Source: Picochlorum sp. 'celeri'
Taxonomy: Eukaryota > Chlorophyta > Trebouxiophyceae
DNA length: 64,000 bases
Direction: 5' to 3'
NCBI GenBank assembly: GCA_010909725.1
Contig: JAACMV010000024.1
Coordinates: 372,001-436,000 of the forward strand
In this document: positions 3,635 to 58,359 of the stretch, one piece after another
Layout of the letters: the number at the start of each line of letters is the position of its first letter
Position numbering within the stretch: position 1 is the stretch's first letter
Notes under the pieces: generated by a model
What the model saw: only the letters and a program-made list of their open reading frames with translations
The model's database searches: none
Told to the model about the DNA's origin: nothing
Program-made: the position numbers and the translations under genes

Positions 3635-3661
3635 CAGCCAGTATCTCACAATGACTGGCTG
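3635..3661. repeat. hairpin downstream of the DPBB gene stop
   Basis: CAGCCAGT (3635-3642) and ACTGGCTG (3654-3661) form 8-bp perfect arms around an 11-nt loop. The hairpin begins 27 nt after the minus-strand stop at 3689 and sits between two co-directional genes. It belongs to the recurring set of post-stop palindromes described in the findings. Confidence 0.7.
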
Positions 3662-3688
3662 TACCACAGTATATTCTCACTGCAATGA

Positions 3689-4504
3689 TCACTTGTTGGG
3701 AGAAGAGTACTCGAGTGGAGCTCCATAGCTTAATTTGATCGTTCCGTCTTTATACAGCTGTTCAGCAGGGACAGTTGTCTGGTACTGTGCCTGACTTTCA
3801 TCATCCACAGAATACACAGCACCTTGGCGGACACCCTTGTCATCCGTTCTCTTCACGAAAATCTTCTCATGCGGCTTTGCAGCGCCACTTGGAGGAATAT
3901 CGAATGGCGTATGATTGTCAATTTGTGGTGCGGGATTCGCAGGGTAATAATTGCATGGGACTTCTCTATACTTGAGTTTCATGCTGCCAAAGTCCTTCTT
4001 GCCGAGGCGCTCATACGCCCAGACACTTAAATCACCATGCATTTCTCCTGCTCCCTGATCCTGGCAGCACCAACGCTTATTCGAGTATGCATTCGACGGG
4101 TACTCGCATGGGCATGTGTCGACAACTCTCACTACCAGGGTTTTGGACTCATCATAGCATGCCCCTGATCTCTCCTGATATTGACCATATCCGTCTGTAA
4201 ATGATTCATTCGTGCAGCCTACTTCAAAACACTTCCCGCATGAGTTTGAGTATTCAGGGCTCAAGTCACTCACAGCAATCACGTCAAAGCCTGGGTAGAT
4301 GTCCCTGAACTGGTATCCCAAACCACAGCTCCCTCGATGAATTGACCAACCATCGGCACCAAAATATGTTGCACGACCAGATTTCCATGGACCCATGCTA
4401 TTGTCATCAGCAGAAGCTATTCCGAAGGACCACAGGGACAGGATAAAGTAGATGGCCGAGAGCCAATAACTGCCGCTGAGGTGGGTAGCGCCATGCAAAT
4501 TCAT
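3689..4504 (-). CDS. secreted double-psi beta-barrel (expansin/GH45-like) protein
   Basis: Probably an extracellular wall-acting protein. Counting from the first ATG (4504) it has 271 residues; the frame also extends a few codons upstream without an ATG. A signal peptide is clear (hydrophobic stretch ending FGIASADD). The body carries an expansin/DPBB pattern: GRATYFGADG, GSCGLGYQFRD, SCGKCFEVGC, VVRVVDTCPC and MHGDLSVWAYERLG, the last matching the conserved HxDLS element that supplies the active-site-like Asp. Many paired Cys suggest disulfides. The roughly 70-residue C-terminal part (after VPCNYYPANP) does not look like the expansin carbohydrate-binding domain, so I would not call it a true expansin. 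Barwin-like proteins are an alternative. Confidence 0.75.
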   Translation of the reverse strand: MNLHGATHLSGSYWLSAIYFILSLWSFGIASADDNSMGPWKSGRATYFGADGWSIHRGSCGLGYQFRDIYPGFDVIAVSDLSPEYSNSCGKCFEVGCTNESFTDGYGQYQERSGACYDESKTLVVRVVDTCPCEYPSNAYSNKRWCCQDQGAGEMHGDLSVWAYERLGKKDFGSMKLKYREVPCNYYPANPAPQIDNHTPFDIPPSGAAKPHEKIFVKRTDDKGVRQGAVYSVDDESQAQYQTTVPAEQLYKDGTIKLSYGAPLEYSSPNK

Positions 4505-4828
4505 GATGCAGTGCAATGATGCCTCCTTTCACTGAGTAATACCGGAATAAGTGCGCAAAGATATTTGAAATGATTACATATACAATCAATACTAGGTCAT
4601 CGCCGCCTATTTCTGTCATTTCTTTGAAGTACGAACAGTTGTCAGACTGTCTTACGTGCCACGAGGGTAGACGTCTGACACACGGGGTTGCGTGCGGGGA
4701 GGTGCCCTGTACATATCGCAGAGGGAGGTGGTTGTGACAGGTGGCAAAAGATTAGGGCATGAGAGTCCGTCGAGAATACAAACTCTGTACATTACATTCG
4801 ATATGACACAGAATTATAGATTTTATCA
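4505..4828. other. spacer between BAG6-like gene and DPBB gene, with an inverted repeat
   Basis: Presumed promoter of the DPBB gene and 3' region of the BAG6-like gene (both on the minus strand). TGTCAGAC (4640-4647) and GTCTGACA (4673-4680) form an 8-bp inverted repeat with a 25-nt spacer. No ORF is supported. Confidence 0.55.
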
Positions 4829-7444
4829 TTATTCGTCACCGAAAATGGCATCAAGGATTCCCTGAGAACCGGTGGTGGAGGGGATGGAGGCCAAGTACGC
4901 TTCTCCTGGATGGGCATCTGCAGAGGAAGAAGGCTGTGCAGAGGCACATCGTTCAATGTGCTGCTGCCATTTCTTCCGTTCTTCTTCGGAGGTAATTTCT
5001 TTCTCTAGGACTTGTTCTATGTCTACTGGGGCTTCCTGGGCTTGGCCCTGGGAGCCTCCAAACATTTGGCCCAAGAGGGGTCCAGCAGAATTCAAGAGTG
5101 CACCCAGGTTGCCTGCATCTCCAGAAGAGCCACTGCGTCGAGCGGAGCTTGCGGATCCAGCCAGCTGCCCTAGAATGTTCTGCATACTTGATCCAGAAGC
5201 TGGAGTTGGCTTTCTGGACTCTTGGCTTCCTTCCTCCTTCTTGCCAGCTACCTTTCTTCGTTTCAGACCTGCACCTAGACCGACTGGCTTTTTGGCATTC
5301 TTCTTTGATGCCGTTCCCATGGAAGACGATTCTCCGCGCTCTTTGATTGCTTCTTCTTCTTTTTTGTCTATTTTTTCTTCCTCTTTCTCTGCCAGTGCCG
5401 CCTGCTCATCATTATTGACCGGCTGCGGCTCTTCTGTAGCCACAGCTGGTTGGGGGACAGCAGTTGCTGTGTCCTGTGGAGGTGTCACAGTATCATCGTC
5501 GCGTGATGGCTCCTCTGTTGCAGCTTCCTGAGAAGCTGTATTCATCATCTGTGCAAACCTCTGTCTCAGAACATTCCCGACTTCATTCATGATTTCAGGA
5601 AGGGCAACACTGATCATGGTGTTCAAGGACTGACTGGAAGCATCCTGGTTTCCACTACTACGAAGTTGCGCTGCTGCCGCTGACAAGCCGCGTCTGATAG
5701 CCTCTCTGATCTCATTTAATATCTCATTGATATCAGTTGAGGCAATACCACGCAGAGCAGAAGAAAATATGTTGGCTAGATTCTGCCCACCTTGCGATCC
5801 ACCAAGGCTGCCTAATATCTCCTCTACTTGAGGAATAGCTCGTCGTATTTCCTCAGCAGCAGATGGTGTTGCCTGGGCGCTATCCTGTGAAGTAGGCTGT
5901 GTTCCGGCGCCCTGTGCTGGCCTTTGGGGAGGAGCCCTCATGCCTGGGAACGAACCCGCCATGCGGACATGCACCCTTGGATGGACATGAAATTGCGGGG
6001 CATTCGGTGTGTTTCCTTGCTGCTGAGCACCAGGTGCTCCTCCTTGCTGTTGAGCCCCGGCATCTGTAGCATTACCAGGTGGTCGAATGGGTATTCCCAT
6101 TGGAACAGCCATGGACACAACACCTGCCATGGACGTTGATGTTGGTACTCCCCCTGTAATCTCAGGAACCAGACTCATGACGCGATGGGCTTCCATATTG
6201 TGCAAAATCCCAACATTGGGGCGTGGCAAGTCATCCTCCATTTGAATATACCCTGGATACAGCTGAAGGAAGAAGAGATTGTTGTCGGTAAGAGCAGAGA
6301 CCAGGTATGCCATGGACCTCCCCAATTCTGCTCCAGACACTGCAAGACGAGTCAAATATCCTCCCACGAGCCGTATCTGACGAACAGTCTCTTCATGATT
6401 TGATATAGAAGACATACTACGCAATCTTTCTGCAGTCCTCAAAACTGTAGCAAGGATCCCTGATGGTGCCTCTGTCTGCCCAAGAACCCGCATGAATCGC
6501 TGTGTAAGGACACCAACTGTCACGGCTGCCACGACAATCAAATCCTCGTGAGAGATGTTCTGAACCCATTCTGTAGATGTATTATTATCTCCATCATCAT
6601 CCTCATCATCTCCATTCATCCCATGAACAGGAAAACTCTGCACACCCAAGGGAAGAGGGTCCTGACCCGCAGCCACCAAAGCCCTATTCACAACTTGCCT
6701 CGTCTCTCTATTCAATCCAGCATCACCTTGCGTCAACACGGACCGACAAGCTTGCAAAAACTGGGTCACAGCAGCAGCGAATTCTCTCGAATGTTGTTGG
6801 TCCCGAAACAGCTCCAAAGATGTTTCTTGCACAGCAGGTACTCTATCCTCACGAGTATCCTCCTCCTCCAAACGGATCAGCATTTGATTCAGAGCATCAA
6901 ACGCTGACCCCAGCCTCATATTACCCTCTTCATCAAGAGAAGGTACCCTTCCCGACAATAAACTACCCCCAATGGGATCCGTCACCTGACTCATTCTCGA
7001 ACGAAACGCGCCATCATCAAGATTCACTGCTGTAAATGGACCAGCCACACCCGCCTGACCATTCAAATTCTGCTGCAAAGATTCCGCAAAGGAGGCTATT
7101 GAATCCGCCAATCCCGGAGGAAGGATTCCAGTCGCATCAAACCCAGGCAGCCCTTGCTCTTCCTGCTGCTGCTGCTGCCCCCCAGGCGATTGCCCAGGTG
7201 GAGGAGGAGCCACCCTTGTCACCATGTGCAACACCACATTCTCCTCCCAACCAAGCGAATCCGCAGACGCTTCCTCATCCGTCAGCTCCCTCCCTCTATG
7301 CAACAAACGCTGCCTCTGCGCAGGAATACCAGTCAGCTCTTCCAAACGACCCTTCAACACGCCCACAACACCCTGCTCACTTCTGTCCACCACGACAGCA
7401 TGTGTCCCAGCCTCCACAGTACGAACCACCACTCGACACGACAT
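4829..7444 (-). CDS. BAG6/Scythe-like ubiquitin-domain protein
   Basis: BAG6 is a holdase in the cytosol and nucleus that hands tail-anchored or mislocalised hydrophobic proteins to insertion or to the proteasome. 871 residues in one uninterrupted exon. Residues 3-75 are a ubiquitin-like fold (RVVVRTVEAG ... LKGRLEELTGIPAQRQRLLHRGRELTDEEA). The middle is Pro/Gln/Gly-rich with a helical block (about 330-420, including FLQLYPGYIQMEDD) like the central BAG6 domain. A Lys-rich nuclear-signal-like stretch (GLKRRKVAGKKEE) lies near 740, and the C-terminal 60 residues (APVDIEQVLEKEITSEEERK) resemble the end of BAG6. Domain order fits; orthology is likely but the middle is too divergent for certainty. 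Confidence 0.8.
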   Translation of the reverse strand: MSCRVVVRTVEAGTHAVVVDRSEQGVVGVLKGRLEELTGIPAQRQRLLHRGRELTDEEASADSLGWEENVVLHMVTRVAPPPPGQSPGGQQQQQEEQGLPGFDATGILPPGLADSIASFAESLQQNLNGQAGVAGPFTAVNLDDGAFRSRMSQVTDPIGGSLLSGRVPSLDEEGNMRLGSAFDALNQMLIRLEEEDTREDRVPAVQETSLELFRDQQHSREFAAAVTQFLQACRSVLTQGDAGLNRETRQVVNRALVAAGQDPLPLGVQSFPVHGMNGDDEDDDGDNNTSTEWVQNISHEDLIVVAAVTVGVLTQRFMRVLGQTEAPSGILATVLRTAERLRSMSSISNHEETVRQIRLVGGYLTRLAVSGAELGRSMAYLVSALTDNNLFFLQLYPGYIQMEDDLPRPNVGILHNMEAHRVMSLVPEITGGVPTSTSMAGVVSMAVPMGIPIRPPGNATDAGAQQQGGAPGAQQQGNTPNAPQFHVHPRVHVRMAGSFPGMRAPPQRPAQGAGTQPTSQDSAQATPSAAEEIRRAIPQVEEILGSLGGSQGGQNLANIFSSALRGIASTDINEILNEIREAIRRGLSAAAAQLRSSGNQDASSQSLNTMISVALPEIMNEVGNVLRQRFAQMMNTASQEAATEEPSRDDDTVTPPQDTATAVPQPAVATEEPQPVNNDEQAALAEKEEEKIDKKEEEAIKERGESSSMGTASKKNAKKPVGLGAGLKRRKVAGKKEEGSQESRKPTPASGSSMQNILGQLAGSASSARRSGSSGDAGNLGALLNSAGPLLGQMFGGSQGQAQEAPVDIEQVLEKEITSEEERKKWQQHIERCASAQPSSSADAHPGEAYLASIPSTTGSQGILDAIFGDE

Positions 7445-7778
7445 ACTATAATATCACTAATACAAGACTATAGCTACCAAGATACCTTTCCTCGCCTTCG
7501 CTGTGTGTTCTCGAAGTTTCCAAAGTGGACTGATTCGTTCGTACTTGAAATATCTGCCCTATTTCCGACCGCTGCAATCCAAAAGAATCTTTTCTTCTCT
7601 ATATATACTAAATATTTGTGTCAACAAAGAATGAATAAAGGAATCTCATGGCAGATCTCTAAAAAGAGAGATCTGGTTGAATCTGACACCCTCATCTCAG
7701 AGCTCTGAGCCAACAGCAAAACACCAATGTGGCTACGGCGGCACTTGTCATATAATTACATACATTATATATTCAAGA
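7445..7778. other. divergent promoter region with two palindromic elements
   Basis: Between the BAG6-like gene and IGPS. It holds a hairpin, CAGATCTCT (7652-7660) and AGAGATCTG (7667-7675) with a 6-nt loop, and a perfect 14-bp palindrome CTCAGAGCTCTGAG (7696-7709). Both are 70-130 bp upstream of the IGPS start. No ORF is supported. Confidence 0.6.
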
Positions 7779-8876
7779 ATGATGGCCCAAAGCATTCATG
7801 GTGGCTATGCCTCGGCTGTGGGAGTACGGAGGAAAAGCACTTTGACAAAGACTTTGAATAGCTCTCGCCTTATGACACGCCATTGTCCCGAAATTGCAAG
7901 AGTGAATGCCGCAATTGGTAGTGAAGCATCTCAGCAAGAAGAGGAGGAGGGAGGTGACAATTCGAAGGCGTCCTCCTGAGGGAATTGGATACACAGGCGT
8001 GCGGTCCTGTGGATTTCAAGGTTCCTAGTTCCGATGAAAACAAGCCTAGGAATATATTGGAGGAGATTGTCTGGTACAAGGCGGTGGAGATTCAACGGAT
8101 GAGGCAAAGGGTGCCCTTGGCCATGCTGATGGGTCAGGCGAAGAGTGCGCCTCCAGCGAGGGATTTTATCGGTGCATTGAAGCAGAAGGCCCAGGAAACA
8201 AAGAGGCCGGGGTTGATTGCAGAGGTGAAGAAGGCGTCTCCCTCAAAGGGCGTCATTCAGCCTAATTTCGACCCAGTGAAGATTGCTCAGGCATATGAGG
8301 CTGGAGGTGCAGCCTGCTTGTCTGTTCTGACTGATTCCAAGTTCTTCCAGGGAGGATTTGAAAATCTTCAAAAGATTAGATCTGCTGGAGTCTCGTGCCC
8401 ATTGCTGTGCAAAGAGTTTATTGTTGAGGCATACCAAGTATTCAAAGCACGTGCAAGTGGTGCTGATGCTATTCTGTTGATTACAGCTGTTCTTCCAAAC
8501 TCCGACATGGAGTATCTGATCAAGTCTGCTCGCAGTGTGGGGACTGCAATGCCTCATCGAGGTCCATACTGTTGGTGAGTTGGAGAGAGTATTGAAGATT
8601 AAGGACCTTGATGGGTGCATGCTTGGCATCAATAATAGAGATTTGCAGACATTTAAAGTTGATTTGGGCAATACAGAGACCATTATGTCGATCAAGGCTG
8701 GAAAAGAGGTGTTGGACAGGGGAATGATCATGGCATCAGAGAGTGGAATTTTTGTCTATGAGGATGTGGCACGGGTGCAACAGGCTGGCTGTGATGTCAT
8801 CTTGGTGGGTGAGAGTTTAGTGAAGCAGGGTGACCCCAAGACTGGAACAGAAGAGCTGTTGCGGGTTGGAAAATAA
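7779..8876 (+). CDS. indole-3-glycerol-phosphate synthase, plastid type, reading frame broken by single-base shifts
   Basis: Converts CdRP to indole-3-glycerol phosphate in plastid tryptophan synthesis. ATG at 7779 begins a Ser/Arg-rich transit-like leader. The plant-type block [13 protein letters not shown] is followed by [19 protein letters not shown], the active-site region [38 protein letters not shown], then [28 protein letters not shown] and LASESGIF-like ([14 protein letters not shown]) to VILVGESLV. To follow the protein one must change frame near 7951, near 8000 and at about 8545 (one extra base each time). No conserved residue is lost, so consensus insertions are more likely than a pseudogene. 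Confidence 0.88.
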
Positions 8877-9260
8877 TCCTGTTGAATACATTTGCGCCTC
8901 ATGTAACCATGGCACAGAACCTGTAGAGCACAAACAACAAGATGGGAATTGACTACCGTCAACCCTCATCTTGATGGGGCGTACTTCCGCCGTCGAGCAT
9001 ACCGTCTTTATTTGTCTCGTCATGCTGTTCTTGTCCGGGCTCAGTACACTATCCAGAGGTCAGAAAATATACATTTAGTAACAGTGTAAACTGTAAGGTT
9101 GCGTAAACCATGCCGTCAGAATAGGCGTGCATACCGCCTGGTTGGAATTGCGGCTGCGACGAATGGCTGTTCTGAACGAGTCTTTTGTTTGCGATGTAAA
9201 AGCTAGGATGACATATAATTATTTAAAATTGCAGGTTAGAGAAGGAATATAAATACAAAG
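8877..9260. other. spacer between IGPS and RPL22, with a long hairpin
   Basis: No gene seen. A hairpin at 8939-8972 has 15-nt arms (12 of 15 pairs, one further G-T) around a TACC loop: AAGATGGGAATTGAC and GTCAACCCTCATCTT. It starts 62 nt after the IGPS stop. The rest is probably the RPL22 promoter and 5' UTR. Confidence 0.6.
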
Positions 9261-9737
9261 ATGGTGCAGGTTGTTCGCCGCGGTGGTTCTGCCCCAAAGA
9301 AGGCAAAGAAGACTTTGACCTTCCACATCGATTGCTCCAGACCAGTCGAGGACAGTATTATGGAAAATTGCTGCCTTTGAAAAGTTTTTAACTGATAAGA
9401 TCAAGGTTGAAGGAAAGACTGGTACGTGTGACTCCTGAAAGCATGGTGGAACGATGTCGGCCGAGTTCATGTGCGGATTCTGACACGGATGATTTGATTC
9501 TTGTAGGTGTTTTGGGGAGATAATGTCAAGGTAACCAGAGATAAGACGAGAGTCACTGTGACGAGCGAGGTGCCAATGTCCAAGAGATACCTCAAGTACC
9601 TTACAAAGAAGTTCCTGAAGAAGCATAATGTCAGAGATTGGCTCCGTGTGATTGCATCCAACAAGGATAGATCAGTATACGAGTTGAGATACTTTAACAT
9701 TGCTGATCAGGCAGAGGATGAGGAGGATGAAGAGTAA
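9261..9737 (+). CDS. RPL22: 60S ribosomal protein L22 (eL22), two single-base shifts
   Basis: Cytosolic large-subunit protein. Exon 1 begins at ATG 9261 ([17 protein letters not shown], then [16 protein letters not shown]) and ends at about 9421; the intron runs GTACGTG...TTGTAG to about 9507; exon 2 ends at 9737 with [20 protein letters not shown] and [20 protein letters not shown] and an acidic tail. As given, exon 1 goes out of frame after SIME: GGAAAATTGC needs one A fewer to read on into the family sequence. Exon 2 also has one G too many after the splice site. Both are in homopolymers, and the gene should be essential, so I treat them as sequence errors. Confidence 0.92.
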
Positions 9738-9874
9738 ATATGCATATATATTTGTTTGTAACACACAACTAGAAGAAGAAATACATCCTCATTGATTGGC
9801 TCTACTCTTTACGTGTACATATATTCAATGTAGTATACAGAGCCGACAAAAACGTTCGTCAATACTGTTCTTTC

Positions 9875-12150: not shown

Positions 12151-12469
12151 ATCTCCTCGGGTGATTTTAAATCACCAAGTGCTAACCAGTGGTGGCTCCA
12201 TTCTCAATACGAGACGACACCATGACCTATGAAATGTACAGTATGTTTAAATCGATACAAATGATGCTATTCCGAGTGCATGTGATTACAAGTGCCATGG
12301 ATATCGCTTCAGGGTATGTTGAAGATCTGGATCTCTGAATTTAAGAGATCTATGCAGATGGAGATGTAGAGACACGTGAGGCGATGGTCTCTATCCCTAA
12401 ACCCATACATACAATTGCTAAAATCTATTGCCTTTTAGTATCTGTGTGAATGCAGAGAGGCAGGACGAC
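12151..12469. other. divergent promoter region of Pumilio and SNF8 with a hairpin
   Basis: GATCTCT (12330-12336) and AGAGATC (12344-12350) form a 7-bp hairpin with a 7-nt loop, 120 bp upstream of the SNF8 ATG. The arm sequence is the same as in the hairpin upstream of IGPS. No ORF is supported. Confidence 0.5.
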
Positions 12470-13276: not shown

Positions 13277-13280
13277 TAAT

Positions 13281-17832: not shown

Positions 17833-17848
17833 CGCACATCGATGTGCG
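17833..17848. repeat. 16-bp perfect palindrome downstream of the TLC gene
   Basis: CGCACATCGATGTGCG, 32 nt after the stop codon, preceded by CTTGATCAATCAAG (a 6-bp inverted repeat with a 2-nt gap). It lies between the co-directional TLC and RAD54 genes. Confidence 0.8.
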
Positions 17849-22055: not shown

Positions 22056-22069
22056 GATGGGTACCCATC
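22056..22069. repeat. 14-bp perfect palindrome in a divergent promoter
   Basis: GATGGGTACCCATC lies between the divergent TBC gene and the 375-residue plastid-lineage gene, about 115 bp upstream of the latter. CATGATCATG lies directly before it. Confidence 0.7.
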
Positions 22070-23310: not shown

Positions 23311-23653
23311 TATCATGTTGATTATGATATCATAATACGTTCACGACCGGAGCTCTCATATGGGATCCTGGCGCCCTGCCAAGGCGCCCACGTCTCCATC
23401 TCAAACGGTTTGAAATGACATCTTTGAACATCATCGTCACCCAATTCACAATGCATTATACCTAAAACATCAAAAGATTGATATTTATAGTAAATATACT
23501 ATATACGTATACGTAAAACCACAAATAGACAGGACTGTGGAAACCCAACGCGAGACTGTCAAACCCAACCGCACGACAACAACTTCAATCATATCTTTCA
23601 GCTACCAAGATGTATGCATCAAAAGGTGCGATATAATAGTATTAAAATCAAAC
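23311..23653. other. spacer with a 16-bp perfect palindrome just after the stop
   Basis: ATTATGATATCATAAT (23321-23336) begins 11 nt after the TAA of the 375-residue gene and is nested with TATCAT...ATGATA. A GC-rich patch with two GGCGCC hexamers follows (about 23368-23391). The open frame of the next gene reaches back to 23537, but only with a non-ATG start. Confidence 0.6.
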
Positions 23654-24319: not shown

Positions 24320-24628
24320 TCGGTACAGAGATCAATATATGATATAGATAGTACTATCTCTGAGGCACAGACATTGATATGAGTTTGCACGCATGTTGAA
24401 ATTTGAAATTGCGGGGGCGCCTTCCGAGTACAGATTTCAAATGAGCACTAGAAAACAAATGGCTACTATGGTCTATACTCATCCTGATAAATTGTTATTT
24501 TCTGATTTTAAAACGTAGTATAGACATACGTGTGGATATACACCCATACCATGTCTGATTTGGGATCCTTGGGCTTGAAATCGCATGACGAGGTGCGTTG
24601 ATCGTTTTCCAATCGCATATACCTTGGC
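24320..24628. other. spacer with a 14-bp perfect palindrome after the stop
   Basis: AGATAGTACTATCT (24346-24359) begins 26 nt after the stop at 24319 and is flanked by a wider AGAGAT/ATCTCT pair (24328 and 24354). A GGGGCGCC patch is at about 24413. An ATG at 24551 opens a short frame (MSDLGSLGLKSHDE) followed by GTGCGT that could be a small first exon of ORC4, but the phase does not fit, so I leave it out. Confidence 0.55.
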
Positions 24629-26609: not shown

Positions 26610-26629
26610 CCAGACTCAACCGAGTCTGG
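26610..26629. repeat. hairpin downstream of ORC4
   Basis: CCAGACTC (26610-26617), loop AACC, GAGTCTGG (26622-26629). It starts 9 nt after the ORC4 stop, between ORC4 and the co-directional TPI gene. Confidence 0.75.
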
Positions 26630-30075: not shown

Positions 30076-30095
30076 GCTTGCTGCTGCCTGCAAGC
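30076..30095. repeat. hairpin downstream of the PA2G4-like gene
   Basis: GCTTGC (30076-30081) and GCAAGC (30090-30095) with an 8-nt loop, 9 nt after the stop. Weaker than the others in the set. Confidence 0.5.
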
Positions 30096-33638: not shown

Positions 33639-33661
33639 TTACACGTAGTACTATGGTGTAA
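33639..33661. repeat. hairpin downstream of paladin
   Basis: TTACAC (33639-33644) and GTGTAA (33656-33661) with an 11-nt loop that itself contains TAGTACTA. It ends 8 nt from the minus-strand paladin stop, between paladin and the co-directional M43-like gene. Confidence 0.55.
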
Positions 33662-37793: not shown

Positions 37794-38205
37794 GGGTGTC
37801 GAACGGTTAGAGACCCAAACTCGTATATCGCCCTGAACAGAGAAAATCCAAGACTTTTCTACCCGTATACAGAGTCAGATACACACGAGGAATACACTGC
37901 GAGTAACCAACCTTCAACCTCTGCTATCACGTGGAAAACAGGTTTTTGCTGCAGAGTTGAAGGGGTCTTTCGTTCTTCTTTGTCTCACAAGAACATAAAC
38001 AATGAATTATTGTATTGTACTCCTTCGACTGGCACCAGGCAGTTGCATCTATGCATCCACATTAATGTGGCAACCCAATGGGGCCTTTCGTCCAGACAGG
38101 TACCGGTCCAATCCAATTTTCTCTCCATTGACAAACTGATCTCCATATTCGCTGCGTCATTTGCATCATAATGCATGTTACAATATTAATGGGTCTATAA
38201 TCAAT
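37794..38205. other. divergent promoter region of paladin and C1D
   Basis: No gene seen. A CACGTG hexamer lies at 37930-37935. No strong palindrome noticed, in contrast to several other divergent spacers. Confidence 0.4.
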
Positions 38206-39728: not shown

Positions 39729-39743
39729 GGGGCGCACAGCCCC
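39729..39743. repeat. GC-rich hairpin downstream of FAN1
   Basis: GGGGC, loop GCACA, GCCCC, ending 8 nt from the FAN1 stop (minus strand), between FAN1 and the co-directional PGR5 gene. Confidence 0.55.
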
Positions 39744-43503: not shown

Positions 43504-43523
43504 ATATGTATGAATTTACATAT
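43504..43523. repeat. AT-rich hairpin downstream of LOG
   Basis: ATATGTA (43504-43510), loop TGAATT, TACATAT (43517-43523), 3 nt from the LOG stop on the minus strand and just outside the transposon end. Confidence 0.55.
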
Positions 43524-46301: not shown

Positions 46302-46353
46302 TGCAATATGGAAGCCATCTTACAATTTTCGGTGACAGATGATCTGTATGAGA

Positions 46354-48241: not shown

Positions 48242-48464
48242 TCTATTTTATTTTCCATTCTTGATCAGAGATGACCCTAGAAGAGTATTGAACCGTCAAA
48301 CCTATTGTCTCGAATTCTTCGATTCACACTGTCAAAGAGAGCATTTGACCGGATGATGCCACAGGTTTCCATTGTTGATGTTGCGCACGACAGTCTCCGC
48401 ACCAGCCACAAATCTATCAAGCTGTTGCGATAAGATCAAAAGTATATATTAAACTAATACAAGG

Positions 48465-49709: not shown

Positions 49710-49876
49710 TATGTTACAGGTGTATACCTCGGTCAGCCACTCGCGTTGACAGGGCTATGTTAACGGATACACAGGCGGCCAAGATATGCCATACTTTCGA
49801 TGAAAGAATTGGCATGTGCTTTAGATTTGTATATTAATTTACAAATACACATTGTAATACCTTTAGAGGGATAAAT

Positions 49877-52800
49877 ATGATTCAGAGTACAATGTGCCGC
49901 ACGGGCACTCCAGTCGCCGCTTTGCGTGACAGTCGTCCTCGTGCAATGGCTCGTATGTCCCCAATTCGTCGTGCATTGAATCAGAAACCGCTCCAGACTG
50001 TTTTCTTGAAAGGAACGCAAAAGCCTCGTACAGCCATCGCAAGAAATGCGTCAGGAAAGCCGGTCTGTTCGGCCGAAGGAGCGTTCCAGGTACGTCGATA
50101 AGCTATGACTGATACGTGCACATTGGAGGGGAATACATGATTTATCTGGACTTTTTTAAGTTTTCTTTGGTTACGAATGGCAGACTGATGGGAATTATTG
50201 TCTTGCAGAATCCATTCAGGTATCCTCGTCAAATGGACGGCTTGCAGAGCGTCTTATCTCAAGTCCCTACTATTGGAGTATATGTTGTCGGTGCAGCAGC
50301 TGTTGCTGCTTTTGGATTAACAGGATCAGTGGGGGCTGGTACTATTGCTCCAGGTGCGACTCCATGCCTATGGCTTCGGATAGGGCTGTGTATGCATTGA
50401 TCCATGTGTGTTTTCTTTTCCCTACATGCAGAGTCCATGAAGACTCTCGGCAAGACTGTGGGTGGTCTCGTTGGAGCTGCTCTGGGAGGATATGTTGCAA
50501 TGCACTTGAAGGAAAGAAGAGAATCTGCAGCGATTATTGAGTTGTCCAACGTCCTGGTGGAGATGAACAATCCAGCTTTGTTGACCAGGGAAATGGTAGC
50601 CACTGTAGAAGCAAAGTATGGCATAGAGCTGTGTGTCTCTTGTCTCGAGGAAATGAAATCGTTGTATGGAACATTTATTGAGGCTGTTATCCCACCAGGG
50701 GCTGCAAATTTGAGCGGAAACGAGCATTTGCTGATTCAGAATTTCAAGCAGGCTCTGGGATTGACCGACGAAGACGCAGCTCCAGTACACATTGATGTTG
50801 GACGACGGGTGCTTCGCGGGCGCTTGGAAGCTGGGTCTCGCGGTGAAGATTTTGAAGCCAGAAAAACGTTCCAAAAGTTGATTTATGTCTCATCCCTTGT
50901 TTTTGGAGAGAGGAAGGCAGCTTTCCTGCTTCCATGGACACGGGTCTTTGGGTTGACTGATGCACAGGTCCAGGTTGCCCGCAGAGACAATGCAAAGAAG
51001 TTGTTCGAGAACCAATTGAACACAATTGGCCTCAAAAGTGATGCAGCCTTGTTGAGGAGCCTCAGAGAATACCAAGCACAGGTGAGATTGGCTGATGAAG
51101 AGGCTGTCGAAGTTATTGTTGGGGCAGAGCAAAAGGTTCTTGAAGGATTCTTAGATACAGCAATTGAGTGCATTAAGCGTAGAACGCGTGGAAAGGACTA
51201 TGGGCCGGCCATTGCCGCTTGCAAGGAAGCCATCGAATTCAATAAAAGCATGGAATCTCTCAAGGGTGCCGAGGAGATCCCATCTGGGATTGGAGCTGTT
51301 TCTTTGGCTGGAACTCCGTGGGAAGCACAGGAAGGACGTTCTAAGGATCTTCGCGAAGTATTCAGGTACGCTCAACGTAGGATTTGTTTAGAACATAACG
51401 ACCGGGTTGATGATAATCTTTTTCCTGTTGCCTTCCTCTTGAGACTTGGAACACTGTCACTGATCCAAGCGGTGATCATCCACACGAGATTTCTGACCGG
51501 CTTTATTTGTGAGTTTTGCGACATATTGTCGTAATTATTAATCTAATCTACTTATTTGTGTTTCTCAGGGTATACCTGGAAGAGAGGCTTTCCAGGGATG
51601 GGGTATTCTCAGATACCTTGGCATCTGATGCCAAGGATCTTCGTTTCCTCCTAGGTATGGGACCAAAAGAAGCCGAGTCTATTGAAAATGATGTCAAAGA
51701 GAAGACATACAAAAATCTTCTTAGAGAAGCTGTCACGTCAGGCGCATTGGATGCAGCAGCCTCCAAGGCAGAAATGCTCGGAGAGCTTGTGGAAAAGGTC
51801 CAGTGGGATGGTGAAGCTGCTCTTGCTTTGCACGAGTCTCTTTACAGACAAAAATTGTCTTCTTTCCTCGAAAAATCTCATATTACAGACGAAGAAGATG
51901 CAGAACTCACAAGGCTCCAAAAGCTCCTGTGTGTTCCAAATGAAGTAAGAAATTCAATTCACAAAGAACTGTGTGGAGAAATATTCGGCAAGACTGTCTC
52001 CAATGCATTGGCGGCTGGTGTTGATAGATTCAGCTTTGATGATCGTGAAGACATCAAGCGCTCTCTTCAGGCTGTCAAATTATCAAGAGAAGCTGCAAAA
52101 GAGATTGTAGATGACGTTGCTCGCAAGTATCTGCTCAAGTACATTTCAACTTCAAGATCCCAGAAAGACCGTATCTCAGCAGCTAAGGAAGTCAAAAAGA
52201 TGGTATTCTTCTCCAATCTTGTGCTTGCCCCTGTCGTAGATGATCTGAAGACTGAAGAGGAAAGAAAGAAGGAGGCCGAAGCTGCTGCTCAACAGAAAGA
52301 ATTCGAGGAGATTATGGCAAAGGCAAAGGCAGAAGCAGCGAAAGAAGAATCCAAGGAAGGAGAGGCTAAAGAAGAAGAGCCAAAGGGATTCTTTGACTCG
52401 TCTCCTACCGTGGAAACCAAGGAGGAGGAGGAGGAAGAGGAGTCTTCTACACCAAAGAGTTTGGAGAAGGCCGAATCTGCAGCTGCTGCTAGAGCTGATG
52501 GTGAAAAGGTTGACGAAGCTGGAACCGTCATGAAATCACAAAAAGATATTACTCTCGCGAAAGACATGGATCTCCAAGACAGAGTTGATGTGTATCGCAA
52601 CTATCTCATGTATTGCATGACAGGAGACGTGATCCAAGGACCTATGGGAGTTCAGATGGTCGCGGAAAGAGATGAGAGTGAATTTGCTCGCCTTAGTCAA
52701 CTGGGCGACCTCCTTGGACTGACCCAGATGGATGTCATGAAGGTCCATCAAGATTTGGCCGAGCAAGCTTTCAAGGGACAAGTTGAGCAATACATGGCTG

Positions 52801-53489
52801 GAGGTGTCCTTACCCCAGAGAAAGCAGAGGCCTTGGAACAGTTACGGGAGAAAATGGGACTTCCAAAAGAAACAGCTGACAAGGTCATCAAAGGATTCCA
52901 GAACAAGAAGCTTATTTCCTCAATGCAAGCTGCCAAAGCGCAGGGAAATCTCACCCTTGATAGAATCTTAGAGCTGAAGGATGCCGGTGTTGATCCAACC
53001 AGTGTTGTGAATTCAGACATGCTCCAGCAATTGTATCGCCAAGAAATATCTAGCAAACTTGGAGATGGAACAGGATCATTTGATGCAGAGAAGTTATTGA
53101 ACGAAGTACCAAAGGAGCTAGGCATCGATTCAGAAAAGGCAGCAAGTGTGGCCAAGAGTCTCGCTGCAGATAAAAGACGCACAACACTGGTGCAGGCAGT
53201 TTCATTCCTGAGGCAGAAAAAGACAAAGGACACTGTTGAGAGTTTGAACAATTTGATGTCCTGCAAACTTGCAGATCCAGACAGCCCACCAGAGAAGTGG
53301 AATGAAGCAGAGGAGATTGCTGACCTGTACAGCCTGTACTGTGTCAAGGAAAAAGACGAAACCAAGAGAGCCGGAGTCCAGTCTGCTCTTGGCCTCTCTG
53401 ATGACGAGGCTAATAATTTAAAATCTATGGCTGATTCCGGAGAATTCAAACTCGGCCAAGATGCGGAAGAAGAGCAGGCTTTCTTTTAA
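49877..53489 (+). CDS. TIC110: TIC110, inner-envelope protein import component
   Basis: Scaffold of the plastid inner-envelope translocon that recruits stromal chaperones. Exons 49877-50089, 50209-50353, 50432-51365, 51569-53489; 1,070 residues. Exon 1 is a basic Ser/Ala-rich transit peptide (AMARMSPIRRALNQKP). Two hydrophobic helices (VPTIGVYVVGAAAVAAFGLT and LGKTVGGLVGAALGGYVAMH) anchor it; the rest is long and helical: FKQALGLTDEDAAPVHIDVG, RRVLRGRLEAGSR, VFGLTDAQVQVARRDNAKKL, LLGLTQMDVMKVHQDLAEQA and YMAGGVLTPEKAEALEQLRE, the usual Tic110 repeats. A Lys/Glu-rich insert lies near residues 550-640. Gene is intact. Confidence 0.95.
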
Positions 53490-53521
53490 ATGAACAACAT
53501 ATATGATAGCATTAATAATAA

Positions 53522-54694
53522 TTACTTTTTTGCAACAAACCATTGCCAAAGACACACAAGCCCAGCAACAGGGAACAAGAAACTCAATTTGAATGTCAAA
53601 ATATCCATCAGATGACCTGAATATGTCTCAAAACTTGTGAAAACCTCTCCAAGGCGCAGAACTTGTGCACTCCCTTCTGAAAACAAGCGATACAAGCAGA
53701 ATCCCCAAAGAACACTCAACAAACCTGTACCCAAATTTAACAACTTGAATGTTGATGCTCCGAGTCTATTTCTCTGAGAAGCATCCAATAAAGTAACAAA
53801 ACTCGAGTACAGCAAAAATGCTCCAATAGAAAGAGACTGAATCAAGTCCCAGCCAAGAGCTCCTGCAGGGATCTGGATCCAACTCAAGCTTCCCAATTGG
53901 TGACCTAGAAATGATTCTGGCAGAAAGTACCTATACCAGACTGTTGTAAACATAAATACCGAAGAGATGGCAGCAAATCCGTAGACATTACTGAGGGAAA
54001 AGATTTTCAGAGGGTTCCAGCTGACAAAATCTATTCTCATCCCTTTTGAGCACATGAACATTGTTCCAAGAGTGAGAGCAAAAATACCAGCATAGACATT
54101 GCCACAGAGAGAAACCATCTGAGATGCTGATGGAACGAAAGCAATCTTTGCCATTTCAAAAAAGGACCATGCTGCTACTCCATATGCAAGCCGTTTGTAC
54201 GTGTTTGACGTCAGTCTCCCATGCTCAGCTGCCCCCACCAAACAATGAGAGAGCAACGCAGCGTAGAGATGCATCCCGCCCATCATACACATCAAAGAGT
54301 TCACCAATGTATTCCCAGATGCAGCTAGATATACTTCAGACAAGATGTTCTCGGGGAAAACTGCCATGGCAATGCCGCAAATACCATGGACCAAGCACAC
54401 AAAGGAAAATGCAGATGGACTTGGATCAATTGGTCTCGACACTGCTGACTCGTATGACGACGCTGATGCAACCATTCCATTCCTTGAATACGCCACCCTC
54501 ATCCCAAACCCCTCTATTCTCCTCGCACAGAGACATCTTGTCGTCGCGCTAGCAGGAACAGCAGTGGCACTCCGTTGCACAGGGTACACAAACTTGCTTG
54601 ACGAAGACAGGGCAACAACCCCATGAGATCTCTGATTACCTCCTGCATGATGAAATGAATACATATTGACTGAATTTGGGTACAATTGAGCCAT
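53522..54694 (-). CDS. hypothetical multispan membrane protein, probably plastid
   Basis: 390 residues from the ATG at 54694 (MAQLYPNSVNMYSFHH); the open frame extends upstream only with non-ATG codons. The first 90 residues are Ser/Ala/Arg-rich with few acids, like a transit peptide. About eight hydrophobic helices follow, for example AFSFVCLVHGICGIAMAVFP, LVNSLMCMMGGMHLYAALLS, VYAGIFALTLGTMFMCS, VYGFAAISSVFMFTTVWYRY and LSFLFPVAGLVCLWQWFVAK. I do not recognise the family. Its stop is 32 bp from the convergent TIC110 stop. Confidence 0.6.
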   Translation of the reverse strand: MAQLYPNSVNMYSFHHAGGNQRSHGVVALSSSSKFVYPVQRSATAVPASATTRCLCARRIEGFGMRVAYSRNGMVASASSYESAVSRPIDPSPSAFSFVCLVHGICGIAMAVFPENILSEVYLAASGNTLVNSLMCMMGGMHLYAALLSHCLVGAAEHGRLTSNTYKRLAYGVAAWSFFEMAKIAFVPSASQMVSLCGNVYAGIFALTLGTMFMCSKGMRIDFVSWNPLKIFSLSNVYGFAAISSVFMFTTVWYRYFLPESFLGHQLGSLSWIQIPAGALGWDLIQSLSIGAFLLYSSFVTLLDASQRNRLGASTFKLLNLGTGLLSVLWGFCLYRLFSEGSAQVLRLGEVFTSFETYSGHLMDILTFKLSFLFPVAGLVCLWQWFVAKK

Positions 54695-54945
54695 CGTTGT
54701 AGGACCTCGTGGAACCAACAACAGAGTCACAGTCAAACAATGACACCGTACCGGTACATTGTGTCAATTTCATCTTTTTGTTTATAACAACAATATGTAT
54801 GTATGAACGGTGATGATGGCAAGGTGTCATCATCCATGCGCAACGTCTCTGACCGATCCATCTGGGTATGACGTGGCTGCAGCAAGGTCCGAAACCAAAA
54901 TCAAAATTACATTTCTATCACCATTCGATATCAATTTGAAATATA

Positions 54946-55727
54946 ATGTCAATAGATACATCATTATTGAAAGAAGAGCTTCGTACTTTGTACGAAGAGA
55001 AGAGAGCAGTGGAACAAGAAGTGGAAGAGTGTGTGGGAAGACTTGAGAGCTGCGGTGTTGGTGTAGAGGGATCTCTGGTGGATTCGGAGGTATGAATACT
55101 ATTATTACTTGATGATGTTAGTCATGGTGTGCCAATAGTGGTGTGGTTTGTAGGGATTTCCGAGGAGTGATTTGGATTTGGTATCAGTCAGGATGGACAG
55201 GCAGAGAGTACACGGTGTGTATGTGTCAGCTCGGCATCGTCGACTATTGGGTTGATGACTGATATCGTATGATCCTTTGTGCAGTTTTGAATAATGACCA
55301 TGCGAGGTTGATGGCACAGATAGAGGGAAAGTTGCACAAGCTTCATGCACATACGAGAGGCGATGTGGATGTTTCTGCTCCTATACAACACACGAGGTCG
55401 TATGTGGAGGAGGAAAGGGTTGCTGCTCCTTTGGCGGTGCCTGCAAAGTCTACATTACCTTTTGCTATTGTGGACGAGGTGAGCCCGGATGGGCCGGCAA
55501 TGCATGCGGGTGTTGCTGTGGGAGACAAGGTGTTGCAGTGTGCCCATATTACTGGTCAGACACCGAATAGCCTTGCAACGATGGGTAGTCTCGTCTCTGA
55601 ATCAGAGAATCGAGTTTTGGATTTGATTGTCTTGCGAGGGGACAATGTTGTGAGGCTCAAATTGCATCCAAAGAAATGGAGTGGTAGAGGGTTGCTTGGA
55701 TGTCATTTGAGCCCTATGAGAGAATGA
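54946..55727 (+). CDS. PSMD9: PSMD9, 26S proteasome assembly chaperone
   Basis: Chaperone (p27/Nas2) for assembly of the proteasome base, binding the ATPase subunit RPT5. Exons 54946-55089, 55154-55214, 55285-55727; 215 residues. An N-terminal coiled helix (LLKEELRTLYEEKRAVEQEV) is followed by GFPRSDLDLVSVRMDRQRV and LNNDHARLMAQIEGKLHKLH, then a PDZ domain (LPFAIVDEVSPDGPAMHAGV, AVGDKVLQCAHI, LDLIVLRGDNVVRLKLHPKK) with a Gly-rich tail. This is the PSMD9 layout. The start was chosen because the first helix begins directly after ATG 54946. Confidence 0.92.
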
Positions 55728-55739
55728 AATATTACATCT

Positions 55740-56839
55740 TTATGAAAACTTTCTTTGCCACCATCGAATGAATTCGGATAAATCTATAGATCCATCCTTG
55801 TTGGTGTCAATAAGCCTTATGGCTGCATCTACTTCTGCAGCCGACTCGATTTCTGGAGAGAAGTCGGCACACAGCTTTCTGAACTCGTCTCTACTAATCA
55901 CGCCGTCATCATCTGCAGTGGCAGTATAATATTATTGTGAGAGGTACTCATCATGTTGGGGACACCATAAGATGACAAAAACCTACTTAAATCATATTTG
56001 GAGAATATTCCTGCAATATCTGCAGCTTCTTTTTCTGTTAACCCGTACTTCTCTGCATCGAATCCAAACGATTTTTCTGCTTTGGAAAGTGCAAGGTATG
56101 CTCCCAAGTCTGTGAGCATATCATTTGATGATGCCATTTGCTCCTCCTCCTTCTTCAAAAGCTCCACCATTTTATTCATTGCTTGGATGATTTTCACAGA
56201 GTTCACTGCATCCTGAGCTTTGTCAGCCACATTGAATCCACTGTTTGTTTTGGCAATACCCTCTACAGCATTCAGGAATGCAGCAGAGTTCAAATTGAAC
56301 TGGATACCTGCAATTGTCACCGTGATAAGCTTGAAGACATCAAAAAGTGCTCCACTCACATAATACCCAGCCAAAAGGTATGCAATAGCTTGTCCAATCA
56401 CGGCGGCTACCCCATAATCTTCGCTTGCAAGTCCAAGATATCCCCCAGCGACGAAAGCACCATAGGCAGCACCCATGTCCAACACAGTGGAAAATAGGAC
56501 TAGTGCCAAAGCTTTCTTGCTCTGGCCCACAAGAATCTTCCGTAAATCTTCCGGGGTGATTCGATGCCCGACATCATCTTGCCAAGTTTTCAAAATCTCC
56601 CTTGCCTTCTCGGGGGTAAGCCCCGAAGATTCCAACTGTTCCTTCAACTTTTCTTGATCTTTCTCTGTCTCACCCTCACCACTTTGGATGCGCTTGGAAT
56701 TAATATTTTTATAATATGTTGAATGAATGTGCCTTGTTCTGGGCGTAAAGCATGTCGATGGCCTCCTGGATTGTATCGCAAGAAGGCCCCAGACACGAGA
56801 GGACTGCAATCTTGGGTTCTGAACAATGCGGCCAGACAT
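55740..56839 (-). CDS. organelle membrane protein with a C-terminal EF-hand pair
   Basis: Exon 1 55987-56839, intron GTAGGTTT...CTGCAG, exon 2 55740-55912; 341 residues from the ATG at 56839. A basic N-terminus suggests mitochondrial or plastid targeting. A Lys/Glu coiled segment (SGLTPEKAREILKTW) precedes two or three hydrophobic helices (ALALVLFSTVLDMGAAYGAF, VIGQAIAYLLAGYYVSGALF). The C-terminus has two complete EF-hand loops: DLNDDGVISRDE, which is built across the splice junction, and DTNKDGSIDLSE. A calcium-responsive organelle membrane protein is likely; I do not know the family. Skipping exon 2 would lose both EF hands. Confidence 0.7.
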
Positions 56840-56922
56840 TTTGCTAAATTCTATCAAGTATTGACAGTTTAAACATATGAAATTGAAAAATATTTGGTTT
56901 TGTCCCCATCAATGGTCTTGGC

Positions 56923-56973
56923 ATGGGGCCCCATTTGGTGCATCTGCGTAGAGATGATGCTGGATAATCCAGC
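56923..56973. repeat. two perfect palindromes between the GH16 and EF-hand genes
   Basis: ATGGGGCCCCAT (56923-56934) and GCTGGAT-A-ATCCAGC (56959-56973). The second lies 62 nt after the GH16 stop on the minus strand; the EF-hand gene starts 84 bp beyond the first. Confidence 0.75.
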
Positions 56974-57035
56974 CTGGATTCGACCCAGATCACCTCAGTG
57001 TAATATCTTGTAGATGAGGATCTTCTCCAGGATCA

Positions 57036-58103
57036 TTATTCTTTCAGGCCATAGACTCTGATATAATCAATGTGCATTGTTTTTGAACTGCTTTCTAGGG
57101 TACTAAGCGCCCTCTCCATTGGCACATTTCCGGTCAAGCCTCCACCCACAGCAACATTCAGCAAGAGGTGGAATTTCTCATCAAATGGAGAATAGGTGGC
57201 TGCTTTTCGGGAGGAGCTGAACCAGCCATTCCGAGTACCCCTACCAGAATGAACCCTGTGGAAGAGGTTTGAATTGAGATACCATTCGATGCTATCCTTT
57301 CTCCAGATGAGTGAAATTTTGCTCCACTGTGTTGGCGTGATTGATGCTTTTGATCCCCAACTGAGGTTTTCTGGCCACGATCCTCCATAGTGGATCGTCC
57401 CGATTGCTTCTTCCATATTATTCACAGCCTCAAATATATCTATCTCTCCAGATTGAGCCCAAATTCCATACTTTCCACACCCGCTACAGGAATTGTTTCC
57501 GCTGTCAGGCAACATCCAGATAGCTGGCCAGATTCCTTCACCAGGCATCACCTTTACTTTCACAGTAATTTTGATGGCATCGTATCCTTTGTATCCAGGA
57601 GATATGCTAAATTTATTCAGAGATCTCAGCCTGGCAGAAGAAATTTGCACTCCTTGGCACTTATTCTTGCATCCCATGTCAGATCCGCATCTCTTTTCAC
57701 AGAATTTTTGAAGCGATCTCAAATTTGATCCAGTCTCTTTACGTGCCTTCAATATCAATCGACCTGCTTCTACGTATGCGTTTCTTTTACTCTTGGTATA
57801 GTACTGATGCTCATTGTTGCCCCAGCCACATATCCCGAACTCGCAACCATCCCCGGTCATATGACTCCATTTGTTCTTGTCCAACCTTTTGAACTCGTCT
57901 CTCCACAAAAGCTTCCATCTTCCCCTGCAAGATCTATGAATATATTTTTGAACCATCTAGGGCGCATATATTGATCAGAAAAGCATTAAAAAGGAACGCC
58001 TGGTCTCAACGATCTAACCGGACAGTAGAGGTACCCACCTACAATTTGCACGCTGTGCTAAGCTTACAATGATACTGAGTAATATTATTGCTTTAATATT
58101 CAT
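57036..58103 (-). CDS. secreted GH16 beta-glucanase (laminarinase-like)
   Basis: Hydrolyses beta-1,3 or mixed-linkage glucans. Exon 1 58039-58103 codes the signal peptide (MNIKAIILLSIIVSLAQ); exon 2 57036-57933; 320 residues, the Arg codon being split by the GTGGGT...TTCATAG intron. The GH16 active site is SGEIDIFEAVN (ExDxxE, both catalytic Glu present). WKLLWRDEFKRLDKNKWSH, GWGNNEHQYYTK, RLILKARKE, GIWPAIWMLPDS, GTIHYGGSWPEN and FHLLLNVAVGGGLTG are classic GH16. A small Cys-rich insert (FCEKRCGSDMGCKNKC) before the catalytic core is unusual. Confidence 0.93.
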
Positions 58104-58339
58104 TTTGGAACCTCTTAGGATTTCAGAAATCGTAATGTCTGTGAGAACTGCTCCCTTTCCCACTCTTGGAATACTTCGGCGTTAACGCGTGGCTCCCCAG
58201 TAGGTCCAAACCATGCCAAATATCCGTTAATTATAGTAATTGACAATTATTTTGATCAAAAGTTGGGGTCTTGGAGCCCTTTACTCGCACAAATATTCAA
58301 AACAATTGCCATCAGCCCGCCAGCTTCAGTTGTACCTTC

Positions 58340-58359
58340 ATGATATCATCATGCATGAT
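58340..58359. repeat. overlapping palindromes downstream of the ABCC gene
   Basis: ATGATATCAT (58340-58349) and ATCATGCATGAT (58348-58359), both perfect, starting 15 nt after the ABCC stop on the minus strand and upstream of the co-directional GH16 gene. Confidence 0.7.

What the first reader, a model, noticed from the sequence alone, without database searches (positions are those of the whole stretch)
3635..58359. Short palindromes or hairpins sit just after the stop codon at nearly every co-directional gene boundary
Seen directly: 23321-23336 (16 bp, 11 nt after stop), 17833-17848 (16 bp, 32 nt), 24346-24359 (14 bp, 26 nt), 58348-58359 (12 bp, 15 nt), 26610-26629 (8-bp arms, 9 nt), 3635-3661 (8-bp arms, 27 nt), 8939-8972 (15-nt arms, 62 nt), 56959-56973 and 56923-56934 (62 and 101 nt), 43504-43523 (3 nt), 39729-39743 (8 nt), 33639-33661 (8 nt), 30076-30095 (9 nt). 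Sequences differ but geometry is shared. EML to TIC110 lacks a clear one and BAG6-like to DPBB has only a distant one. I saw none in convergent pairs. A perfect 16-bp palindrome is expected about once in 4^8 positions, so three in the few kb of spacers is an excess. They could be 3'-end or termination elements, or boundaries that stop read-through into the next promoter in a very tight genome. I know of no such described element in green algae.
Basis: partly seen in the sequence, partly recalled or inferred. Interest (0 to 1): 0.78.

Follow-up and report, generated by a model that had tools for sequence, protein, structure and literature searches.

The report
Short palindromes crowding an alga's promoters
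The short mirror-image DNA sequences seen after stop codons in this tiny green alga are real, but they do not behave like gene-end hairpins: they are commonest in the promoters between diverging genes, and those beside stop codons probably belong to the next gene's promoter.

Summary
The window lies in a 27.4 Mb, 30-contig diploid genome that matches Picochlorum celeri. The listed palindromes exist; 4 of 12 boundaries are unusual against shuffles (P 0.013 or less), 4 are ordinary. In 284 kb (183 model genes) "nearly every co-directional boundary" fails: outside the window 7 of 57 tandem ends have an inverted repeat with arms of 7+ within 40 nt of the stop (expected 1.2), against 1 of 52 convergent ends (expected 1.4). 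The contrast is real, but the excess is strongest where no gene ends: divergent promoters. Near-perfect palindromes with arms of 8+ number 15 (expected 1.4) in divergent, 9 (1.5) in tandem and 3 (0.4) in convergent spacers, 0 (0.4) in well-sized introns. Their sequences mostly differ, and RNA folding just after stops is at chance. Best reading: DNA-level dyad elements of promoters, which in tight tandem pairs lie against the upstream stop codon. An extra local excess at the stop remains (P 0.013), so a boundary or roadblock role is not excluded. Termination hairpins are not supported.

The parts
17833..17848 (.). 16-bp perfect palindrome 32 nt after the stop of a TLC-domain gene, 185 nt before the next ATG of the model
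   Evidence: 0 of 300 shuffles as good; exact copies only here and on the other allele, one further locus at 2 mismatches
23321..23336 (.). 16-bp perfect palindrome 10 nt after a stop, 317 nt before the next ATG of the model
   Evidence: P 0.003
24346..24359 (.). 14-bp perfect palindrome 26 nt after a stop, 296 nt before the next ATG of the model
   Evidence: P 0.013
26610..26629 (+).
   Evidence: PF14629; P 0.007 taken from 26600; z -1.97
3635..3661 (-). 8-bp arms, 11-nt loop, 27 nt after the stop of the DPBB/expansin-like gene, 185 nt before the next ATG of the model
   Evidence: P 0.063; z -2.38
58348..58359 (.). 12-bp palindrome 15 nt after the stop of the gene ending at 58375 (- strand)
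   Evidence: P 0.067
56959..56973 (-). 6-bp arms, downstream of the GH16 gene that ends at 57036; the best repeat of the 110 nt overlaps it (7-bp arms, loop 1)
   Evidence: P 0.05; z -1.94; gene end
8939..8972 (+). imperfect hairpin with long arms after the gene model ending at 8876
   Evidence: z -2.11; not unusual by perfect-arm score (P 0.43)
1319..1332 (.). 14-bp palindrome in a divergent promoter spacer
1411..1426 (.). 16-bp perfect palindrome in the same divergent spacer
1452..1468 (.). 8-bp arms, loop 1, same divergent spacer
7652..7675 (.). 9-bp arms, loop 6, divergent spacer
7696..7709 (.). 14-bp palindrome, divergent spacer
12160..12176 (.). 8-bp arms, loop 1, divergent spacer
22056..22069 (.). 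14-bp palindrome, divergent spacer
38057..38070 (.). 14-bp palindrome, divergent spacer
62423..62446 (.). 8-bp arms, loop 8, divergent spacer

Best explanation
The palindromes are double-stranded-DNA dyad elements of promoters, most likely sites where dimeric DNA-binding proteins (transcription factors) sit. They lie roughly 60-400 bp upstream of start codons. Divergent spacers, which hold two promoters, have the most. Tandem spacers hold one promoter; because the spacers are short (median 330 nt), its upstream part lies directly against the stop codon of the gene before, which gives the impression of an element that follows stop codons. Convergent spacers and introns hold no promoter and have fewer. 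Shown here: the excess, its distribution, the lack of an RNA folding signal, and the near-uniqueness of the sequences. Inferred: that proteins bind them, and that the stop-adjacent ones serve the downstream gene.
For: Near-perfect palindromes (loop 0-2, arms 8+), observed/expected: divergent 15/1.4, tandem 9/1.5, convergent 3/0.4; introns of 45-130 nt 0/0.4, and 9/5.9 and 2/1.4 at arms 6+ and 7+. In the looped class (loop 3-12, arms 7+) divergent 35/13.9 and tandem 27/15.4 are in excess, convergent 4/5.5 is not. The divergent and tandem excess survives order-3 and order-4 Markov nulls. 41 of 48 divergent spacers of 100 nt or more carry a repeat (expected 24.1), 38 of 70 tandem (28.9), 10 of 18 convergent (7.0). 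Near-perfect repeats sit in the middle of divergent spacers and are near chance in the last 60 nt before ATG (4 against 4.3; sixths). In 26 tandem spacers of 150-360 nt, window included, their density rises away from ATG. Ten of 12 stop-adjacent cases lie in spacers up to 360 nt, 63-324 nt before the next ATG: 10 of 41 short against 2 of 32 long spacers, Fisher P 0.056. Arm spacing peaks at 0, 1 and 4 nt in divergent plus tandem spacers; the 4-nt peak is missing in convergent spacers plus introns (1/1.3) and slight in CDS (19/11.8). RNA folding in the first 50-60 nt after stops is at chance on both strands.
Against: The sequences hardly recur: 145 distinct inner half-sites among 159 repeats (15 identical pairs against 6.9 expected, 4 of 500 nulls), fewer than a few dominant factors would give. 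The excess keeps rising with length, to 18 bp and more (4 against 0.2 in divergent spacers), beyond usual factor sites. Fourteen of 16 central tetramers are above expectation in divergent spacers, not just known plant cores. At equal distance from ATG, stop-adjacent positions are richer than the rest. Promoter-free DNA is not clean: all called introns (17/7.9) and convergent spacers (15/8.1) have about the same 2-fold excess of loop 0-2, arms 6+ repeats as tandem spacers (48/22.6). Counted from both stops, convergent spacers have plain palindromes in excess at 20-150 nt, and the 13 convergent spacers of 150 nt or more have an excess in one end sixth (4 against 0.8 and 4 against 0.7). Looped repeats with arms 7+ are about 3-fold in excess in the last 60 nt before ATG of divergent genes (14 against 4.6).
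Confidence: 0.5

Rival explanations
1. Boundary or roadblock elements: a protein bound to the palindrome at the upstream edge of a promoter stops polymerase reading in from the neighbouring gene, as Reb1 does in yeast. In tandem pairs that edge is the stop codon; in divergent pairs it is the middle of the spacer.
For: Enrichment within 40 nt of tandem stops and not of convergent stops; the local excess at the stop beyond the promoter background, outside the window 6/0.65 against 19/7.4, P 0.013; the middle-of-spacer peak of near-perfect repeats in divergent pairs. Termination of elongating polymerase by Rap1 and Reb1, protecting downstream genes, is stated in passages of PMC6602560.
Against: Only a minority of tandem ends have one: 7 of 57 outside the window, 10 of 41 short spacers overall. 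No shared motif as a general roadblock factor would need. TGTAA, the likely poly(A) signal, peaks within 50 nt of convergent stops and at 25-50 nt after tandem stops, so ordinary 3'-end formation seems to serve both.
Confidence: 0.2
2. A by-product of mutation or DNA structure: open promoter DNA folds back or is copied by template switching, which perfects near-palindromes; or palindromicity as such (cruciform, nucleosome exclusion) is what is kept. No particular protein reads them.
For: Near-unique sequences; excess growing with arm length and spread over 14 of 16 central tetramers; an arm-spacing peak at 4 nt, a good hairpin loop (recalled); a weaker palindrome excess in CDS (26/14.1 at loop 0, arms 7+) and about 2-fold in called introns. 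Direct 7-mer repeats are also in excess in the same spacers (116/38 divergent, 118/49 tandem), as a general short-range copying process would give.
Against: The strongest class is loop 0, where foldback copying would need a loop. Introns of 45-130 nt show little or no excess.
Confidence: 0.2
3. RNA hairpins in 3' UTRs that act in termination, 3'-end processing or mRNA stability.
For: 4 of 12 listed sites fold well as sense RNA: z -2.38 (3635), -2.11 (8939), -1.97 (26610), -1.94 (56959). Near-repeats with one mismatch in the first 60 nt have G-T 6 against A-C 2. Folding z is slightly negative further out, e.g. -0.30 +- 0.13 at 75-125 nt after tandem stops, but about equally in antisense (-0.24 +- 0.14).
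Against: Mean folding z in the 50 nt after tandem stops is -0.08 +- 0.11 (76 ends), outside the window -0.04 +- 0.15 (56 ends), convergent 0.06 +- 0.09 (58 ends). Shuffles also give G-T above A-C (2.6 to 1.7). The palindromes 17833, 23321 and 24346 are not formed as hairpins in the 80-nt predicted folds, though 17833 is in a 36-nt fold. Convergent ends lack them.
Confidence: 0.06
4. Chance, sharpened by the reader picking the best examples.
For: Four of 12 sites are ordinary; the window's 9 of 20 tandem ends with arms of 6+ within 60 nt drops to 10 of 53 outside (expected 8.3).
Against: The arms-7+ excess repeats outside the window, 7 of 57 against 1.18, reached in 0 of 200 shuffles.
Confidence: 0.04

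Closest known systems
Short inverted repeats near poly(A) sites in Saccharomyces cerevisiae (PMC6420913; abstract and the sections Introduction, Distribution of IR sequences and What the positions and types of IRs suggest read)
   Same: Short inverted repeats in excess just downstream of stop codons in a compact eukaryotic genome, tested against randomised sequence.
   Different: In yeast the 3' class is AT-rich, peaks about 100-130 nt after the stop and near poly(A) sites, and is tied to the poly(A) signal; another class lies 30-60 bp inside genes. Here most contain G+C, the tandem peak is 0-40 nt after the stop, it is missing next to convergent stops, and the excess is strongest in divergent promoters.
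Palindromic binding sites of dimeric transcription factors (general knowledge; plant G-box, GTAC and RY cores are recalled, not from a call)
   Same: Dyad symmetry, short preferred spacing, position upstream of start codons.
   Different: Little motif recurrence and an excess that extends to 18 bp and more.
Reb1/Rap1 roadblock termination in yeast (passages of PMC6602560 seen)
   Same: An element between a gene end and the next promoter that could stop read-through.
   Different: Reb1 and Rap1 read defined motifs (recalled); here no common motif was found, and only a minority of tandem ends have an element.

Membership tests
Yeast 3'-UTR inverted repeats (poly(A)-signal class) | AT-rich arms | tested here: not met
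   Of near-perfect repeats with arms 6+, 63 of 74 in divergent and 38 of 48 in tandem spacers have 25% G+C or more
Yeast 3'-UTR inverted repeats (poly(A)-signal class) | Enrichment in 3' flanks, near poly(A) sites | tested here: inconclusive
   Present 0-40 nt after tandem stops, absent there at convergent ends; poly(A) sites themselves not mapped, only the TGTAA peak
RNA terminator or 3'-end hairpin | Sense-strand RNA folding stronger than shuffled | tested here: not met
   z -0.08 +- 0.11 over 76 tandem ends; short tandem spacers -0.12 +- 0.17, 41 ends
RNA terminator or 3'-end hairpin | Found at all kinds of gene end | tested here: not met
   1 of 52 convergent ends within 40 nt against 1.36 expected; plain palindromes further from convergent stops are somewhat in excess
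Dimeric transcription factor sites | Dyad symmetry with short, preferred spacing | tested here: met
   Spacing peaks at 0, 1 and 4 nt in divergent plus tandem spacers
Dimeric transcription factor sites | Confined to promoter DNA | tested here: inconclusive
   Strongest in divergent spacers; introns of 45-130 nt near chance, but all called introns and convergent spacers show about 2-fold for arms 6+
Dimeric transcription factor sites | Motif recurs in many promoters | tested here: inconclusive
   15 identical half-site pairs against 6.9; CTTGCATGCAAG at 13 places genome-wide, alleles included, against 2 for one control palindrome; the 17833 palindrome occurs exactly only at its own locus and allele
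Dimeric transcription factor sites | Bound by a protein in the cell | not testable with these tools
   No binding or chromatin data held
Reb1-type roadblock | Common motif | tested here: not met
   145 distinct inner half-sites of 159 in divergent and tandem spacers
Reb1-type roadblock | Polymerase stops there | not testable with these tools
   No transcription data held

The most novel reading that the evidence does not exclude
In this alga palindromy itself, not any one motif, is the promoter feature: most intergenic promoters carry their own near-unique short palindrome, which works as a DNA structure at the upstream edge of the promoter and, in tight tandem pairs, as the boundary that separates it from the gene before.
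Probability: 0.18. Interest if true: 0.72.

Novelty: new variant of a known kind. Interest (0 to 1): 0.42.

Why it matters
If the promoter palindromes are functional they mark regulatory DNA in a production alga for which one paper (passages of PMC12301381 seen) says that no information on inducible promoters was available. The pattern also bears on how a very compact eukaryotic genome keeps neighbouring genes apart. Searches of the held library listed no such nuclear element in green algae; one search listed palindromic repeats in green-algal organelle genomes (Lobosphaera, Gonium; listing only). These were capped lists (20 of 109, 20 of 5,705, 20 of 31), and most subscription papers are not held. 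In the Picochlorum SENEW3 genome paper the words palindrom-, inverted, intergenic and promoter do not occur.

Tried and rejected
Rfam (gathering thresholds) and tRNA scans of the window gave nothing. RNA folding along stops and starts gave no gene-end signal. Allele comparison with the C7 copy (99.7% identical) has no power: 2 events in 704 bp of intergenic arms against 3.9 expected, and 11 intergenic substitutions, none in an arm, so compensating changes could not be sought; over the whole window 2 repeats with arms 7+ are found only in this allele and 3 only in the other, 75 in both. Association of stop-adjacent repeats with absence of TGTAA: 1 of 12 with TGTAA against 14 of 61, Fisher P 0.44. 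G-U asymmetry: too few cases. A recurring-motif explanation: only weak recurrence. A protein search with the FAN1-like protein gave 22 relatives; that tool gives no DNA context, so it was not followed.

Limits: gene models come from my own HMM without transcripts. Spacers of 12 nt or less were left out of most counts, and shorter ones wherever a fixed stretch was needed.
Full report
Setting. The window is part of a 27,412,692-base, 30-contig assembly with a second, 99.7% identical copy of the region on another contig. This matches the published phased diploid genome of Picochlorum celeri: 27.43 Mb, two sets of 15 scaffolds, 46% G+C (PMC7225527, part 1 of 2 of the text read). I worked on 284 kb: the window and its right-hand neighbourhood (194 kb), 50 kb of contig 1 and 40 kb of contig 2. 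Genes were called with an HMM of my own: 128 + 31 + 24 models.

Observation. The listed repeats exist. Shuffling the 110 nt after each of 12 stops shows that four are unusual, four borderline, four ordinary; the score is that of the best perfect repeat there, which for three boundaries is not the listed one. As RNA, 4 of 12 fold with z below -1.9, but three of the strongest DNA palindromes (23321, 17833, 24346) do not stand out: z -1.02, -0.32 and 0.60.

Replication. Outside the window 7 of 57 tandem ends with at least 40 nt of spacer carry an inverted repeat with arms of 7 or more within 40 nt of the stop; 1.18 are expected and 0 of 200 shuffles reach 7. Convergent ends: 1 of 52, expected 1.36. 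With arms of 6 the tandem excess is weak (8 against 4.64; 18 of 200 shuffles reach it). One of the seven is a triplet-repeat stretch and one an A/T run. Of the seven upstream genes, the first (a model of 1261 codons, SMC-like by eye) and an argininosuccinate-lyase-like one look like complete proteins; these names are recalled, and the others were not checked.

Where the excess lies. Repeats with loops of 0-2 and arms of 8 or more: divergent 15 against 1.4, tandem 9 against 1.5, convergent 3 against 0.4; outside the window alone 12/1.1, 7/1.1 and 3/0.4. In coding exons 15/10.6, in all called introns 0/0.6, in introns of 45-130 nt 0/0.4. Repeats with loops of 3-12 and arms of 7 or more: divergent 35/13.9, tandem 27/15.4, convergent 4/5.5. 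Even palindromes rise in excess with length in divergent spacers, from 1.4-fold at 6 bp to 10-fold at 14-16 bp. Against a purely promoter-bound signal: at arms of 6 and loop 0-2, all called introns (17/7.9) and convergent spacers (15/8.1) show about the same 2-fold excess as tandem spacers (48/22.6), while divergent spacers reach 74/20.2. Part of the signal is therefore a general non-coding one. Order-3 and order-4 Markov nulls give the same picture for divergent and tandem spacers.

Position. In divergent spacers near-perfect repeats are in excess from about 60 to 400 nt upstream of ATG and near chance in the last 60 nt (4 against 4.3), while looped repeats with arms of 7 or more are about 3-fold up even there. 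Counting spacer ends with any repeat of arms 6+ in those 60 nt gives 9 against 10.3 outside the window but 9 against 3.8 in it. By sixths of the spacer the near-perfect class peaks in the middle of divergent spacers and falls towards both start codons; the arms-7 class is flatter. In 26 tandem spacers of 150-360 nt, window included, both classes are highest at the stop side and fall towards ATG; in 32 longer ones the first sixth is up 2.3-fold and the pattern is weak. Thirteen convergent spacers of 150 nt or more have an excess in one end sixth (4 against 0.8 and 4 against 0.7), and plain palindromes at 20-150 nt from convergent stops are up, so gene ends without promoters are not wholly free of them. 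Stop-adjacent repeats: 10 of 41 tandem spacers of 60-360 nt against 2 of 32 longer ones, P 0.056; with arms of 6 and loop 0-2 the contrast is 5 of 41 against 2 of 32, P 0.46, and with arms of 6 and loops to 12 it is 13 of 41 against 6 of 32, P 0.28. The short-spacer rule is suggestive, not proved. Against a pure promoter reading, at equal distance from ATG (60-350 nt) the stop-adjacent positions are richer than the rest: 10/1.11 against 21/11.06 overall, and 6/0.65 against 19/7.4 outside the window, P 0.013.

DNA or RNA. Mean folding z of the 50 nt after 76 tandem stops is -0.08 +- 0.11 in sense and -0.09 +- 0.13 in antisense; some stretches further out are slightly below zero on both strands. 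The element is thus not a general transcript hairpin. TGTAA (the green-algal poly(A) signal, recalled) peaks 25-50 nt after tandem stops (10 hits over 70 ends) and 0-50 nt after convergent stops (23 over 94), so ordinary 3'-end formation seems to operate at both kinds of end.

Character. Spacing between arms peaks at 0, 1 and 4 nt in divergent plus tandem spacers (31/3.5, 15/3.9, 16/3.3 at arms 7+); the 4-nt peak is absent in convergent spacers plus introns (1/1.3) and slight in CDS (19/11.8). The sequences are mostly different: 145 distinct inner half-sites of 159, with somewhat more repeats than chance. One recurring palindrome, CTTGCATGCAAG, has 13 places genome-wide, alleles included, against 2 for one control of the same length. 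The 17833 palindrome occurs exactly only at its own place and allele. Direct 7-mer repeats are also in excess (116/38 divergent, 118/49 tandem), so short-range repetition of other kinds is common in the same DNA.

Conclusion. I file them as DNA dyads of promoters, with protein dimers the likeliest readers (0.5), a boundary or roadblock role (0.2) and a structural or mutational by-product (0.2) as the main rivals. The closest published pattern, yeast inverted repeats at gene ends (PMC6420913), differs in composition, position and gene arrangement. A review passage (PMC7999016) says yeast inverted repeats cluster between genes, more in 3' than in 5' flanks, the opposite of what I find here.

Noticed in passing
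2651/2661, 13276/13281, 20817/20819, 53489/53522, 55727/55740: These convergent gene models end 1-32 nt apart, so their 3' UTRs presumably run into each other's coding sequence.
   Followed up: no
sampled divergent and tandem spacers: AAGGCGCC occurs 7 times in 6 promoter-bearing spacers (expected 0.2) and GTAGTA 53 times (expected 14.3); candidate promoter motifs.
   Followed up: no
sampled gene ends: TGTAA peaks 25-50 nt after tandem stops and 0-50 nt after convergent stops, pointing to very short 3' UTRs.
   Followed up: partly
sampled divergent and tandem spacers: Inverted repeats prefer arm spacing of 0, 1 and 4 nt, with a weaker rise at 8; unexplained.
   Followed up: partly
window 1-64000 against the C7 copy: Allele differences between genes are mostly indels (65 indel events against 11 substitutions in intergenic DNA), which may be uncorrected long-read errors; the assembly was not polished with short reads (PMC7225527).
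   Followed up: no
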